A model generated the notes under the pieces. It searched no databases. It had not been told where the DNA came from and worked only from the letters and a program-made list of their open reading frames with translations. A stretch of 64,000 bases of DNA, from NCBI RefSeq assembly GCF_014207635.1, contig NZ_JACHIE010000001.1, positions 558,001-622,000 of the forward strand, read 5' to 3'. A program made the position numbers and the translations under genes. Positions 7,160-12,144 of the stretch are shown piece by piece; the first letter of the stretch is position 1, and the number at the start of each line of letters is the position of its first letter. Source of the DNA: Acetobacter lovaniensis. Its GTDB lineage: Bacteria > Pseudomonadota > Alphaproteobacteria > Acetobacterales > Acetobacteraceae.

Positions 7160-9739
7160 ATGCCCCAGACCTTTTTTTCCGACCCTGATGACATTGCAAA
7201 CGGACTGCCGGTCAAGGAGATTCTCCCCCAGCTCCGCGCGGTTCTGGCGGCAGAGCCCACAGCCGAGCGCCCTGCCAGCGCCATTGTGGTGGCACCTCCG
7301 GGGGCTGGCAAAACCACGTCCATTCCCCCCGTGCTGGCCGCCAGCGCGTGGCGGGGCGAGAGCGGACGGATTATCATGCTCGAACCCCGCAGGCTGGCCG
7401 CCCGCGCCGCCGCCCAGCGCATTGCCAGCCTTATGGGGGAGGAGGCAGGCGGGTTTGTAGGCTACCGCACCCGCATAGACAGTGCCGTTTCTGCCCGCAC
7501 CCGGATTGAGGTGCTGACCGAAGGACTGTTCCTGCGCCGCCTGCTGGGAGACCCCATGCTGGAGGATGTCGCCTGCGTTATTCTGGACGAGGTGCATGAA
7601 CGTTCCCTGGAGGCGGATCTCGCCCTTGCGTTCTGTCTGGACCTGCAACGTACCTTGCGGCCCGACCTGCGGCTTGTTGCCATGTCCGCCACCGCCGAAA
7701 CCGAACGGCTGGCCAGCCTGATGAACGCCCCCGTGCTGACCAGCGAGGGCCGCATGTTCGCGCTGGAAGTCCACCATGCCAAAACGGACATTCCCACCCT
7801 GCGCGACATAGCCCCCGCCACGGCTGCGGGCATACGGCAGGCGCTAGCGGAAACCACGGGGGATATTCTGGCCTTTTTGCCCGGCACGGGGGAAATCCGG
7901 CGCACGGCCCAGTTGCTGGACGGCATCAGTGCGACTGTCCTGCCCCTGCATGGAGAGTTGCACCCCGCAGAACAGGCCCGTGTGCTGCGCCCGGCCGATA
8001 ACGGGGAGCGCCGCGTTATTTTGGCCACATCCATTGCGGAAACATCGCTGACCGTACCGGGTGTACGTGTGGTGGTGGATTGCGGTTACCGCCGCGCGCC
8101 ACGGTTTGATGCCGGGGCCGGGCTTTCCCGTCTGGATACACTGCGTATTTCCCGGGCAGCGGCACGCCAGCGGGCAGGCCGCGCGGGGCGTGAGGCACCG
8201 GGCACGGCCTATTGCCTGTGGAGCGCCAGCACACAGCGCGCCATGCCCCAGCATGACCGCCCCGAAATTCTGGAAGCTGATCTGGCAGATTATGTTCTGG
8301 CCACAGCCCTGTGGGCTGATACGGTTGGAACAAGTGAGCCGTTACCCCTGCCCGACCAGCCCCCCGGCAGCGCAGTTGCCGCCGCGCGGGAGCTGCTGGA
8401 ACATCTGGGAGCGCTGGATCAGGCAGGGCATATTACCTTGCTTGGCAAACGCATGGCCCAGCTTGGCACACACCCGCGCCTTGCCGCCATGCTTTTGGCG
8501 GCGCGCACGGGGGAGGAGGCCGCCATGGCAGCCGACCTTGCCGCCCTGCTTGAAGAGCGCGACCCCCTGCGCCCACGCCATGCAGCACACGGCAAGCCTC
8601 CCATAACACCCCCTGCCGATATCGGGTTAAGGCTGGACCTGATCGCAGGCGAAGACCACCCTGATGCGGACCGCGCCGCCCTGAGCCGCATACGGCTAGC
8701 GGCAAAGCGGTTCCGCTCCCGGCTGCATGTTCCCCAGCACCTGCCTGCACAGGGCAACCCCGCCGCCCTGCTGGCAGCCGGGTTCCCAGATCGGATTGCC
8801 CTGTGCCGGGGCGAACCGGGCAGCTACCGGCTGGCCAATGGCAGCAATGCGCGCCTCAGGCGTGATGATGGGCTAAGCCCCCACCGCCTGCTGGCCGTGG
8901 CCGGGCTGCACCTGCGCACCGCAGCCGAAATACGGCTGGCAGCACCGCTGGACCTGAACGACCTGCCCCCCTCCCTGCTGGCGCGTACGCAAGAACAGGT
9001 TGAAACCACGCTCGACCCCGTATCTGGCAATATTCTGGCCCGCAGGCGCACGCGCATTGGCTGCCTTGTGCTCAAGGACAGAACCGAAAAAGTCAAGCCG
9101 GAGGAAGCCGCAACCCTTCTGCTGGTCCATGTACGCGATAACCTGGAAAACGCCCTGAACTGGACAGAAACCGTCAGGCAGTTGCAGGCCCGTGTTGCTC
9201 TGGCCCGGAGTGTGCACACCACGCCTGAATCCGCTGGCGGCACGCAGGAGGAAGAACCGGTCTGGCCTGATTTTTCCTCCCCCGCTCTGGCGCAGACTGT
9301 GACGGACTGGCTGGCCCCTTATATGGAGGGCCGCAACTCCGTTGCCGCCATGAAGGAACTGGATGTGCCCACCCTGCTGCGCAACCTGCTGACATACACC
9401 CAGTCCCAGTGGCTGGAGCGGGAACTGCCAACCCATCTGCCCTTCCCCGGTGGACGGGCAGAGGTGGATTACACCCAGCCCGTACCCGTGGCCTCGGCCC
9501 GTGCGCAGGTTTTTTATGGCACGGAGCAGACACCCCTCCTGGCAGGCGGGCGGGTACCCCTGCGGCTGGCTCTGCTGTCCCCCGCCGGGCGGCCACAGGC
9601 CATTACGGCGGACCTTGGCGGGTTCTGGCAGGGCGGATGGGCGGATATGCGCAGGGACATGCGCGGCCGCTACCCGCGCCACGACTGGCCCGAAAACCCG
9701 GCCCTTGCCCCGGCAAAACCACGCCCGCGCCCAAGCTGA
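7160..9739 (+). CDS. hrpB: ATP-dependent RNA helicase HrpB
   Basis: The 859-residue product is a DEAH/DExH-box helicase of the HrpB family. Motifs are in order: Walker A APPGAGKTTS near residue 47, LDEVHERS (motif II) near residue 142, SATAE (motif III), and QRAGRAGR (motif VI) near residue 337. The HA2 and HrpB C-terminal regions follow. Its role in bacteria is poorly defined; it is thought to act on RNA. The start was set at 7160 because AAAAGGCGG precedes it; an in-frame ATG at 7121 lacks support. Confidence 0.93.
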   Translation: MPQTFFSDPDDIANGLPVKEILPQLRAVLAAEPTAERPASAIVVAPPGAGKTTSIPPVLAASAWRGESGRIIMLEPRRLAARAAAQRIASLMGEEAGGFVGYRTRIDSAVSARTRIEVLTEGLFLRRLLGDPMLEDVACVILDEVHERSLEADLALAFCLDLQRTLRPDLRLVAMSATAETERLASLMNAPVLTSEGRMFALEVHHAKTDIPTLRDIAPATAAGIRQALAETTGDILAFLPGTGEIRRTAQLLDGISATVLPLHGELHPAEQARVLRPADNGERRVILATSIAETSLTVPGVRVVVDCGYRRAPRFDAGAGLSRLDTLRISRAAARQRAGRAGREAPGTAYCLWSASTQRAMPQHDRPEILEADLADYVLATALWADTVGTSEPLPLPDQPPGSAVAAARELLEHLGALDQAGHITLLGKRMAQLGTHPRLAAMLLAARTGEEAAMAADLAALLEERDPLRPRHAAHGKPPITPPADIGLRLDLIAGEDHPDADRAALSRIRLAAKRFRSRLHVPQHLPAQGNPAALLAAGFPDRIALCRGEPGSYRLANGSNARLRRDDGLSPHRLLAVAGLHLRTAAEIRLAAPLDLNDLPPSLLARTQEQVETTLDPVSGNILARRRTRIGCLVLKDRTEKVKPEEAATLLLVHVRDNLENALNWTETVRQLQARVALARSVHTTPESAGGTQEEEPVWPDFSSPALAQTVTDWLAPYMEGRNSVAAMKELDVPTLLRNLLTYTQSQWLERELPTHLPFPGGRAEVDYTQPVPVASARAQVFYGTEQTPLLAGGRVPLRLALLSPAGRPQAITADLGGFWQGGWADMRRDMRGRYPRHDWPENPALAPAKPRPRPS

Positions 9740-9774: not shown

Positions 9775-10050
9775 TTACATGCACCTGTCCTCAAGCTCTT
9801 CGAGCTTGTGCAGCGTATGTGCATCCTTCAGGTCTTCCAGAATATCCTTCAGGGTCGGCAGGAAATTATGCAAAACCCGCAGATCGTCCAGCCCCTGCGC
9901 ATGGGCTATGCTGCGCTGTTTGAGAAAGTAATCCCAGAACGGGCTGCTCCTTGTCTCAAAATGTATTTGCAGCAGGCCAAACACCTCGGCGGTCCTGCTT
10001 TCCCACTCCACATTCCTGAAACTCACGTAACGGTCAAACTCTTCGGCCAT
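9775..10050 (-). CDS. cowN: CowN-like protein (protects nitrogenase from carbon monoxide)
   Basis: The 91-residue protein resembles CowN. It has the N-terminal DRYVSF motif (residues 6-11), the central PFWDYFLKQR segment (37-46; NAFWEKF-type in known members), and a C-terminal helix ending in an acidic stretch plus Cys (EELEDRCM). Known CowN binds nitrogenase and sustains N2 fixation when CO is present. GGGGGGAGAGAC precedes the start. The gene lies downstream of a CooA-like regulator on the same strand, with a CooA-type palindrome 63 bases before its start, matching the known CooA-cowN pairing in Rhodospirillum and Azotobacter. No nif gene is in this window, so a different or relict function remains possible. 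Confidence 0.78.
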   Translation of the reverse strand: MAEEFDRYVSFRNVEWESRTAEVFGLLQIHFETRSSPFWDYFLKQRSIAHAQGLDDLRVLHNFLPTLKDILEDLKDAHTLHKLEELEDRCM

Positions 10051-10112
10051 GTCTCTCCCCCCATATCTGCCAGACCGGAAAGGGAAGTGTGAAACACCAC
10101 GCAGGCGCTGTC

Positions 10113-10128
10113 TGTCAGATGCCCGACA
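10113..10128. promoter_or_regulatory. Candidate CooA-type operator upstream of cowN
   Basis: The 16-bp element TGTCA-N6-CGACA lies 63 bases before the cowN start, in the 88-base gap between the CooA-like gene and cowN. As I recall it, the CooA consensus at the R. rubrum coo promoters has this same two-fold TGTCR-N6-YGACA form. The spacing suits activation of a sigma-70-type promoter. No convincing -10 box and no -24/-12 sigma-54 element is visible. Confidence 0.6.
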
Positions 10129-10138
10129 TAAAACGCTT

Positions 10139-10816
10139 TCAGGTGTTCCTTATGCCATCTCCGCTGGCCCAGTTTTCAAGCAGGGAGACATCCTTCAGCC
10201 GCAGATAACCCCGGCGTTCGCGCGCAAATGCGCCCTCGCGGATCATGGCATTGAATTCGGTGGAAACAGTCTGCCGGGTTGTACCCAGTAGCGCCGCCAT
10301 TTCCTCCATACCCAATGCAAGCGGCACCATCTGGCCCGGTTGCAATGCAATACCGGCCTGAGCCGCGCTGCGGACAACATAGCGGGCAATCCGCCCTCTG
10401 GCATGATGGAAGGCAAGGTCTTCCAGCAAGGTCATGGTCTGGCCCAGCACTTTTGCCAGACCACGAACAAGAGCCTGCTGGAATGCAGGGTGGACCGCCA
10501 GCACCTGCTCCACGGCGGTCCGTTGGGCAATAAAAAGTCTGGTGGGTTCACTCGCCTGCATGTGCAACCGTGTATGGGTGCTGAACATGTCGCCCGGCCG
10601 CAGATAGGCAAGACTCAACTCCCGATCAAACGCCAGCCAGAACGCACGCAGGCATCCGGTTTTGATAATAAGAATATAATCCGCATCATCCGGGTGCGTG
10701 AGCAGTTGCCCGCGCTCGAACGCCATCTTCTGGAACACCCCGCGCGGCAGGTGTGACCCTTCTGTTTCCAGCAGTGCCAAAATAGAGGAGTGAGCAGGAC
10801 TGTGTGGTGGCATCAT
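10139..10816 (-). CDS. CRP/FNR-family regulator resembling the CO sensor CooA
   Basis: The 225-residue protein has an N-terminal cyclic-nucleotide-type sensor domain, a long dimer helix and a C-terminal winged helix-turn-helix (EEMAALLGTTRQTVSTEFN). The sensor segment DRELSLAYLRPGDMFSTH aligns well with the heme pocket of CooA, where GDMFCMH supplies Cys75 and His77. Here the histidine is kept (H81) but the cysteine is replaced by serine (S79). The TRQTVST recognition helix is close to the SRQTTST of CooA. It has no FNR-type N-terminal cysteine cluster. The most likely target is the adjacent cowN. An ordinary CRP/FNR regulator without heme is the alternative. Confidence 0.72.
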   Translation of the reverse strand: MMPPHSPAHSSILALLETEGSHLPRGVFQKMAFERGQLLTHPDDADYILIIKTGCLRAFWLAFDRELSLAYLRPGDMFSTHTRLHMQASEPTRLFIAQRTAVEQVLAVHPAFQQALVRGLAKVLGQTMTLLEDLAFHHARGRIARYVVRSAAQAGIALQPGQMVPLALGMEEMAALLGTTRQTVSTEFNAMIREGAFARERRGYLRLKDVSLLENWASGDGIRNT

Positions 10817-11025
10817 TCAGACCCATGTCGCAAAGACCATGCCACATCCCCGGCCCACTCTCCCATGAACATGCCACAACCGGAGAAAGGGCGTGTTCAA
10901 CCCGCCTTTGCGCCCCACAACATGAAAAAGAAGAGGAAAACAGGGTTCGACCCAGCAGCATGGTTGCGCAACCGCGCCAAACATGGCCTAAAGTTCATAT
11001 GCTTGGCTCCAAGGCACCGCACCTT

Positions 11026-12144
11026 ATGAACAGACTGTTGCAAGGCCTGCCCTGTGTGGCCGTGATCTACCTGTGCTGCACATCCCCCCTGTGCGCTGGA
11101 GACGCGTGGGCTGGCACGCTGCCATCTTTTGCGCCCGCAACACCCCTTGTGACCTCTGGCCCGGTCAGCTTTGCCCCACTTGTGCGCAAGGTTGTGCCCG
11201 CAGTGGTCAATATTGCCGTCACACGCGATGATTCTGCCGCAGACAGCCACCACAAGCTGCCTTCCTCCGTCAAGGGCACGCCACTGGAGCGGCGTTACCG
11301 CGAACGCATGCGCCACCATGGGGATGAACTACTGGAGGCCGGGTCCGGCTTCTTGATCGACCCCAGCGGTTTTATCGTAACCAACGGCCATGTGGTGGAA
11401 GATGCGGACACCATTACCGTCTCACTCGTCAGTGGCAAGGAGTTTACCGCAACGCTGGTGGGCATGGACCCGCTGACGGATATTGCCGTTATCAAGATTA
11501 CCAGCGCCGAGGCCCTGCCCTATGTGGAATGGGGGGATAGCCGACAGGTACAGGTAGGAGACTGGATTATGGCGGCGGGCAACCCGTTTGGTCTGGGGTC
11601 CTCCGTAACGGCTGGCATAGTCTCCGCCCGCGGGCGCGATATAGGCAGCAGCCCGTTTGATGACTTTTTACAGCTTGATGCGCCCATAAACCCCGGCAAT
11701 TCCGGCGGCCCGACCTTTAACCTTGCGGGGCAGGTTGTCGCACTCAACACCGCCATTGTTTCCCCCACCGGGGGGTCTGTGGGGCTCGGGTTTTCCATTC
11801 CGTCCGAAATTGTGATTCCCATTGTGGAAACCCTGCGCCAGACCGGGCACATAGACCGCGGCTGGCTGGGCGCAACGCTGGATGATGTTCTGACCCATAA
11901 TGGCGCCAAGGTTACCGAGGTGGACCGCAACAGCCCCGCAGCGCATGGCGGGCTCCGCAAAGGCGATGTTATTACCATGCTCAACGGGGAGCATGTGGAT
12001 ACCGCCCGCGCCATGATCCGCGCCATTGCTGCCGCCAGACCGGGGAGCGAGGCCGCCTTGGCCATCATGCGCAATACCCGCCCGCAAACGCTGACCATCC
12101 ATGTCGGCCTGCGCCCTTTGTCAGAGGATGGCGGGTTCCACTAG
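11026..12144 (+). CDS. DegP/DegQ-family periplasmic serine protease with one PDZ domain
   Basis: A 372-residue trypsin-like protease with an N-terminal signal peptide (cleavage near DAWA, residue 29). The catalytic triad is His122 (NGHVVEDAD), Asp152 (PLTDIAV) and Ser226 (GNSGGP). A single PDZ domain follows (about residues 280-365), as in DegS-like or short HtrA proteins, where E. coli DegP has two. It should degrade misfolded envelope proteins. The start at 11026 was chosen for the signal peptide; the frame stays open upstream to 10804, overlapping the CooA-like gene, and an in-frame ATG exists at 10999. Confidence 0.88.
   Translation: MNRLLQGLPCVAVIYLCCTSPLCAGDAWAGTLPSFAPATPLVTSGPVSFAPLVRKVVPAVVNIAVTRDDSAADSHHKLPSSVKGTPLERRYRERMRHHGDELLEAGSGFLIDPSGFIVTNGHVVEDADTITVSLVSGKEFTATLVGMDPLTDIAVIKITSAEALPYVEWGDSRQVQVGDWIMAAGNPFGLGSSVTAGIVSARGRDIGSSPFDDFLQLDAPINPGNSGGPTFNLAGQVVALNTAIVSPTGGSVGLGFSIPSEIVIPIVETLRQTGHIDRGWLGATLDDVLTHNGAKVTEVDRNSPAAHGGLRKGDVITMLNGEHVDTARAMIRAIAAARPGSEAALAIMRNTRPQTLTIHVGLRPLSEDGGFH

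What the first reader, a model, noticed from the sequence alone, without database searches (positions are those of the whole stretch)
9775..10816. CowN-like gene paired with a CooA-like CO sensor inside housekeeping DNA of an acetic acid bacterium
The 91-residue protein has CowN hallmarks (DRYVSF start, PFWDYF core, acidic end with Cys), and the gene upstream encodes a regulator whose heme-pocket segment follows that of CooA. CowN is known to sustain nitrogenase activity under CO. Most Acetobacter are not considered nitrogen fixers, and no nif gene is in this window. Either this strain is a diazotroph or CowN/CooA serves another CO-related purpose.
Basis: partly seen in the sequence, partly recalled or inferred. 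Interest (0 to 1): 0.78.

Follow-up and report, generated by a model that had tools for sequence, protein, structure and literature searches.

The report
CowN with CooA in nitrogen-fixing Acetobacter
This acetic acid bacterium does carry nitrogen-fixation genes elsewhere in its genome, so the small gene pair seen here is the expected shield (CowN) and carbon-monoxide sensor (CooA) that keep nitrogenase working when carbon monoxide is present, a system already known from its relatives.

Summary
9775-10050(-) is CowN (NCBIfam equivalog, 92.6 bits, cut-off 48). 10139-10816(-) encodes a CooA: it groups with two proven CooAs (support 93/98), and placing it with FNR/FixK is rejected (p 0.0016). The haem-ligand His is kept; the Cys ligand is Ser.

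The puzzle dissolves: the same genome has a nif cluster on another contig, and no CO dehydrogenase model passes its cut-off. cooA-cowN is described in Gluconacetobacter diazotrophicus (PMC8047169).

(2) The pair fills the hrpB-degP gap in all three; the closest relative lacks nifD and CowN, and its gap holds a probable 44-bp cowN scar. (3) A CooA box precedes cowN in 17 of 17 genomes with adjacent cooA (16 strict), 0 of 11 without; 7 of those 11 have a sigma-54 promoter at cowN instead. (4) A sigma-54 promoter sits at exactly -31 of cooA in seven acetic acid bacteria.

Best explanation: sigma-54 (NifA) turns on cooA; CooA plus CO turns on cowN; CowN shields Mo-nitrogenase. New member of a known kind.

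The parts
9775..10050 (-). cowN, 91 aa, Mo-nitrogenase CO-protection protein
   Evidence: PF20543 70.5 bits, NF033689 92.6 bits
10086..10091 (-). candidate -10 hexamer CACACT of the cowN promoter
   Evidence: CAYAYT exactly 37 bp from the box start in 7 of 10 genomes; not in the other 3, where I read TAGGAC or TAGGGT at that offset by eye; inferred
10113..10128 (-). CooA box TGTCGGGCATCTGACA (tGTCg-N6-tGACa; also fits the NifA site TGT-N10-ACA); its first base is 78 bp before the cowN start
   Evidence: consensus from PMC8047169; in 17 of 17 genomes with adjacent CooA (16 strict), 0 of 11 without. A single match in a window this size is not unusual by itself (36 of 100 shuffles have one).
10139..10816 (-). 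cooA, CO-sensing CRP/FNR-type regulator; the likely true start is the second ATG (10813; MPPH...)
   Evidence: PDB CooA matches, tree and AU test, aligned starts
10830..10844 (-). sigma-54 -24/-12 promoter TGGCATGGTCTTTGC, 31 bp before the second ATG of cooA
   Evidence: same offset in 7 of 7 acetic acid bacteria of this clade; a single match is not unusual in the window (2 found, 1.14 expected)
7166..9739 (+). hrpB helicase gene, left flank of the site
   Evidence: TIGR01970 809 bits, cut-off 546; within 121-631 bp of the degP-like gene in 43 CowN-less genomes of the genus
11029..12144 (+). Do/DegP-like serine protease gene, right flank of the site
   Evidence: best NCBIfam hit TIGR02037, 351.5 bits, under its cut-off of 416.2

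Best explanation
A nitrogenase CO-protection module. Under nitrogen-fixing conditions NifA with sigma-54 transcribes cooA from the promoter at 10830-10844. The CooA dimer binds haem through the conserved His; when CO binds, it docks on the box at 10113-10128 and recruits sigma-70 polymerase to cowN. CowN binds the MoFe protein and lowers the affinity of its cofactor for CO, so N2 reduction goes on. Shown here: gene identities, the nif cluster in the same genome, co-occurrence with nif, conserved and well-placed sites. Inferred: NifA as the activator of cooA, CO binding by this CooA, sigma-70 use at cowN, and CowN action, which is carried over from G. diazotrophicus.
For: CowN equivalog. CooA by PDB similarity and tree. 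nif cluster in G000. CowN in 11 of 397 sampled family genomes, 10 of them with nifD over its cut-off, against 9 of the 386 without CowN (Fisher p 4e-14). CooA (E 1e-15 or better) in 10 of 13 CowN genomes and 0 of 55 others among 68 chosen genomes. Box in 17 of 17 against 0 of 11. Sigma-54 site at -31 of cooA in 7 of 7. In G. diazotrophicus cowN rises about 30-fold under diazotrophy and further with CO, and CowN cross-links to MoFe protein (PMC8047169, passages).
Against: No experiment in this organism. No exact NifA site (TGT-N10-ACA) within 300 bp upstream of cooA in the seven, nor within 350 bp of nifH in the four nif-bearing genomes of the genus, though 13 of 13 other nifH upstream stretches have one. 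The box at cowN also fits NifA, so the two regulators cannot be told apart by motif alone. The Cys ligand is missing. Three of 13 CowN genomes lack CooA, and 9 of 19 nifD genomes lack CowN. The cooA sigma-54 site was not found in 10 other CooA genomes. The 28 genomes are not independent lineages.
Confidence: 0.93

Rival explanations
1. The pair serves CO oxidation (CooA governing a CO dehydrogenase), with CowN incidental.
For: CooA regulates coo genes in other bacteria (passage in PMC8148161). Other matches to the box pattern exist in the genome (30 strand-matches against 6 for the reversed pattern), so more targets are possible.
Against: CooS model: no match in G000; 4 of 15 genomes have weak matches and none passes the cut-off. 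CoxL model: best G000 match 114.5 bits against a cut-off of 991; 0 of 15 pass, though five other genomes reach 475-681 bits.
Confidence: 0.02
2. The regulator answers redox or NO rather than CO (an FNR/Dnr-type sensor), and cowN is in effect a nif gene.
For: The Cys ligand of 1ft9 is Ser here. cowN is expressed under diazotrophy even without added CO in G. diazotrophicus.
Against: FNR/FixK grouping rejected, p 0.0016; the ligand His is invariant in the 20 aligned sequences; CO adds to induction in G. diazotrophicus, whose CooA homologue also has Ser (P0012).
Confidence: 0.04
3. A decayed or horizontally stranded remnant without function.
For: It lies on another contig than the nif cluster, among housekeeping genes; the closest relative lacks it.
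Against: Both frames are intact, invariant CowN residues are kept, promoter elements are conserved, and in the genus it occurs only with nifD (3 of 3).
Confidence: 0.02

Closest known systems
algH-cooA-cowN of Gluconacetobacter diazotrophicus (PMC8047169)
   Same: Same family, same cooA-cowN order; CooA box overlapping a NifA-type site upstream of cowN; sigma-54 implied for cooA. CowN 77% and CooA 66-67% identical.
   Different: Flanked by hrpB and degP rather than by algH; box first base at -78 instead of -75.
cooA-cowN of Rhodobacter capsulatus (Hoffmann 2014; not held; known to me from citations in PMC8047169 and a passage of PMC9298215, the rest recalled)
   Same: CooA activates cowN; recalled: cooA is itself activated by NifA.
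   Different: There the pair lies beside nifHDK (recalled); here it is on another contig.
CowN of Rhodospirillum rubrum and cooA-cowN of Rubrivivax gelatinosus (passages of PMC4257681)
   Same: CowN; cooA beside cowN in Rubrivivax.
   Different: R. rubrum has rcoM beside cowN, with cooA in the coo cluster.

Membership tests
CowN (NF033689 / PF20543) | Full-length score over the curated cut-off | tested here: met
   92.6 bits against 48; 70.5 against 27
CowN (NF033689 / PF20543) | Host has Mo-nitrogenase | tested here: met
   nifH, nifD, nifK over their cut-offs
CowN (NF033689 / PF20543) | Protects nitrogenase from CO | not testable with these tools
   Shown in vitro for G. diazotrophicus CowN (PMC8047169, abstract and passages)
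CooA | Closer to proven CooA than to FNR/FixK/CRP | tested here: met
   Clade support 93/98 (not starred by the tool); AU p 0.0016 and 0.0021 for the alternatives; long outgroup branches are a caveat
CooA | Haem-ligand His (His77 of R. rubrum; role recalled) | tested here: met
   GDMFSTHTR; THT invariant in 20 sequences
CooA | Cys75 ligand of the ferric form (role recalled) | tested here: not met
   Ser in 19 of 20 aligned sequences, Thr in P0025, so a subgroup trait; recalled as not required in all CooAs
CooA | Pro2 / N-terminal amine as the other ligand (role recalled) | tested here: inconclusive
   MPPH... (MPP of R. rubrum recalled), but MSAH... in G. diazotrophicus
CooA | tGTCg-N6-tGACa box at the target | tested here: met
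   Window 10113-10128; 17 of 17 (16 strict) against 0 of 11
CooA | CO-dependent DNA binding | not testable with these tools
   Needs purified protein

The most novel reading that the evidence does not exclude
cowN comes in two exchangeable control circuits: a CO-gated one (adjacent cooA, CooA box, no sigma-54 promoter) and a directly nif-gated one (no adjacent cooA, sigma-54 promoter at -48 to -50, no box). In acetic acid bacteria the CO-gated circuit is an AND gate (nitrogen starvation, then CO) run by a Cys-less CooA subgroup from a nearly leaderless cooA mRNA, and the module is deleted together with nif when a lineage gives up fixation.
Probability: 0.55. Interest if true: 0.4.

Novelty: new member of a known kind. 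Interest (0 to 1): 0.27.

Why it matters
It shows by gene content that some Acetobacter species, usually seen as non-fixers, carry a nif cluster with a CO-shield module, so CO tolerance of nitrogenase may be a selectable trait in this group. The two-circuit pattern makes a simple question testable: when does a diazotroph pay for a CO sensor instead of expressing CowN whenever it fixes N2?

Tried and rejected
CO oxidation as the purpose: rejected, no CooS or CoxL over the cut-off. FNR/FixK or CRP identity of the regulator: rejected.

NifA sites upstream of cooA: none exact in 300 bp. My first reading of the box as TGTCA-N6-CGACA at about 10119-10134 (note) was the other strand with wrong coordinates; searches corrected it. 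A first script failed because loci were not turned to the match strand; one search replaced it. In one search I loosened the box to admit R. rhenobacensis (CGTCG...) after seeing its sequence; the strict count is 16 of 17.

cowN scars in G403, G362 and G429: none. The G400 scar scores above all shuffles against G000 only (40; 500 shuffles, maximum 32); against G405 and G427 it scored 32 and 24, not above all of 200 shuffles (maximum 36 each), and against G060 and G247 it was at background.

Paper searches for nif genes in Acetobacter and Komagataeibacter: listings only, nothing specific seen and none of those papers opened. The window's species could not be named; the closest NifD is a cluster named Acetobacter peroxydans, 95% identical.

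Full report
The observation. Two genes on the minus strand, cooA (10816-10139) then cowN (10050-9775), lie between hrpB (to 9739, plus) and a DegP-like protease gene (from about 11029, plus). CowN passes both curated models over its full length. The regulator passes the Crp-type helix-turn-helix model (46.8 bits, cut-off 27) and falls just short of the cNMP-binding cut-off (24.9 against 27.5); no NCBIfam model claims it over its cut-off. Among solved structures three full-length chains named as CooA or the CO oxidation regulator come first (4e-30 to 1.5e-29), two short chains (4k8f, named only Crp/Fnr family, and 6cpb, CooA-1) follow at 2e-13 and 4e-13, and everything else is at 1e-8 or weaker. 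The source organisms of 1ft9 (R. rubrum) and 2fmy (Carboxydothermus) are recalled.

Is the regulator a CooA? In a tree of 29 proteins (the 20 rows, window included; five paralogues of the same genome; E. coli CRP and FNR; the aligned parts of two proven CooAs) the 20 rows and both proven CooAs form one group, support 93/98. Placing the window group with the FNR/FixK rows or with the CRP rows is rejected (p 0.0016 and 0.0021). The support is not starred, and several outgroup branches are long; the tool warns of both. In the alignment the ligand His is invariant; the position of Cys75 is Ser in 19 of 20 and Thr in one. The roles of those residues are recalled.

Is the host a diazotroph? Yes by gene content. 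Contig C4 holds nifH, nifD, nifK, nifN, nifB, nifA, nifU, nifS and nifV over their cut-offs. nifE was scanned as a piece cut by the locus edge (362.7 bits, cut-off 505). NifW, a DUF269 protein (recalled as nifX-linked), two electron-transfer flavoprotein genes, an FAD oxidoreductase and a ferredoxin-like gene (the last four read here as fixABCX) also match Pfam models. nifH has a sigma-54 promoter at -81. The nifD model finds three places in G000, all in this cluster, so no alternative nitrogenase was seen. CO dehydrogenase: the CooS model has no match in G000; four of 15 genomes have weak matches and none passes the cut-off. The CoxL model matches in 15 of 15, in G000 at 114.5 bits, in five other genomes at 475-681 bits, and passes its cut-off of 991 in none.

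Distribution. CowN: 11 of 397 genomes drawn evenly from the family. nifD over its cut-off: 19 of the same 397. Ten have both; the eleventh, G258, is a 410-contig draft with matches of 140-288 bits but no nifD over the cut-off; nine nifD genomes lack CowN (Fisher p 4e-14). In the genus: CowN 3 of 49, nifD 4 of 49. CooA, sought at E 1e-15 in 68 chosen genomes (all 49 of the genus plus 19 family genomes with nifD or CowN): found in 10, all with CowN and beside it, divergent in two (G143 has a second, 26% identical match elsewhere); 0 of 55 CowN-less genomes; three CowN genomes lack it.

Promoters. Upstream of cowN, TGTC-N8-GACA occurs at -71 to -83 in 10 of 10 CowN genomes with CooA and in 0 of 3 without. 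In 23 loci of named genomes: 12 of 13 with CooA in the flank, 0 of 10 without; eight of these 23 are genomes already counted. Over 28 distinct genomes: 16 of 17 against 0 of 11, or 17 of 17 when one differing outer base is allowed for R. rhenobacensis. A sigma-54 promoter at cowN shows the reverse: 0 of 17 against 7 of 11, all seven in Rhodopseudomonas. The 28 genomes are related, so the Fisher values (5e-8 and 3e-4) overstate the case, and 'no CooA' for the named loci means none in the flank held (about 3-4 kb upstream, 1-4 kb downstream). Upstream of cooA a sigma-54 promoter lies at exactly -31 in 7 of 7 genomes of the acetic acid clade; a strict match was absent in three other Acetobacteraceae, whose start codons are unsure, and in seven other CooA genomes. 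With polymerase starting about 12 bases after the GC of that promoter, the cooA mRNA would have a leader of about 5 bases (inference). Downstream of the box a CAYAYT hexamer lies at a constant 37 bp in 7 of 10, the place of a -10 element in class II activation (recalled geometry); in the other three I read TAGGAC or TAGGGT at that offset by eye.

Genomic site. hrpB and the degP-like gene were both found on one contig in 46 of the 49 genomes, 121-631 bp apart in 43 CowN-less genomes and 1289, 1292 and 3154 bp apart in the three with CowN. Some matches are partial or broken (G411, G415, G417, G427) or contain an in-frame stop (seven further degP matches), so single gap lengths are approximate. 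The extra 2 kb in A. lambici is an aldehyde dehydrogenase gene. In the seven stretches examined outside the genus (20 kb each; six from the Komagataeibacter and Gluconacetobacter handles, and G143) neither neighbour was found. On a tree of hrpB plus degP (27 of 49 genomes) the order is G427 (94/92), G405 (83/77), then G000 with G400 (100/100); forcing the three CowN genomes together without G400 is rejected (p 1e-7), and two changes of cowN and three of nif suffice. G400 has neither nifD nor CowN, and its gap holds a 44-bp ungapped stretch, 32 of 44 identical, to the end of cowN at nearly the same distance from the hrpB stop (34 against 36 bases; score 40; 500 shuffles mean 19.3, sd 2.8, maximum 32). 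I read this as a deletion scar: nif and the shield were lost together. It rests on one genome and one short match.

Literature. PMC8047169 (opening part and passages read) describes algH-cooA-cowN in G. diazotrophicus, the CooA consensus, its overlap with a NifA site, likely RpoN control of cooA, 30-fold cowN induction under diazotrophy with more under CO, binding to MoFe protein and a roughly tenfold weaker CO affinity. PMC4257681 (passages) notes cooA beside cowN in Rubrivivax. PMC9298215 (passage) reviews R. capsulatus; PMC12903952 (passages) lists cooA and cowN among protection genes; PMC8148161 (passages) covers CooA only. The primary R. capsulatus and R. rubrum papers are not held. I did not see the two-circuit pattern in the passages read of the four opened papers that name CowN; the other papers listed were not opened, and the two unheld papers may discuss it.

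Verdict. A well-founded observation with an ordinary explanation: the expected CO-protection module of a diazotrophic acetic acid bacterium. The added value is the nif cluster, the mapped site with a probable scar, and the two-circuit pattern.

Noticed in passing
L098, L102, L103, L105-L107, L112 (cowN upstream): Rhodopseudomonas cowN genes without adjacent cooA have a sigma-54 promoter at -48 to -50 and no CooA box: an alternative wiring of cowN.
   Followed up: partly
L176 (G400:C1:515501-516700): Probable 44-bp scar of the cowN 3' end in the hrpB-degP gap of the closest relative, which lacks nifD.
   Followed up: yes
L064:4949-5824 (G000:C4:84949-85824): A SIR2-like (PF13289) gene lies directly upstream of nifH; a TGTCG-N6-TGACA match at C4:85213-85228 falls inside it.
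   Followed up: no
L063:2578-6347 (G000:C4): A protoglobin-chemoreceptor gene and a PAS-GGDEF-EAL gene lie at the far end of the nif cluster.
   Followed up: no
L047 (G416:C10): G416 is a nifD-bearing genome of the genus with neither CowN nor CooA; its hrpB-degP gap is 385 bp.
   Followed up: partly
window 10813-10844: The distance from the sigma-54 site to the cooA start is constant (31 bp) in seven genomes and would leave about 5 nt of leader, with no room for a Shine-Dalgarno site (inference).
   Followed up: partly
L181:1528-3045: A. lambici has an aldehyde dehydrogenase gene (ExaC-like, 884.8 bits, just under the cut-off of 900) between degP and cooA.
   Followed up: no
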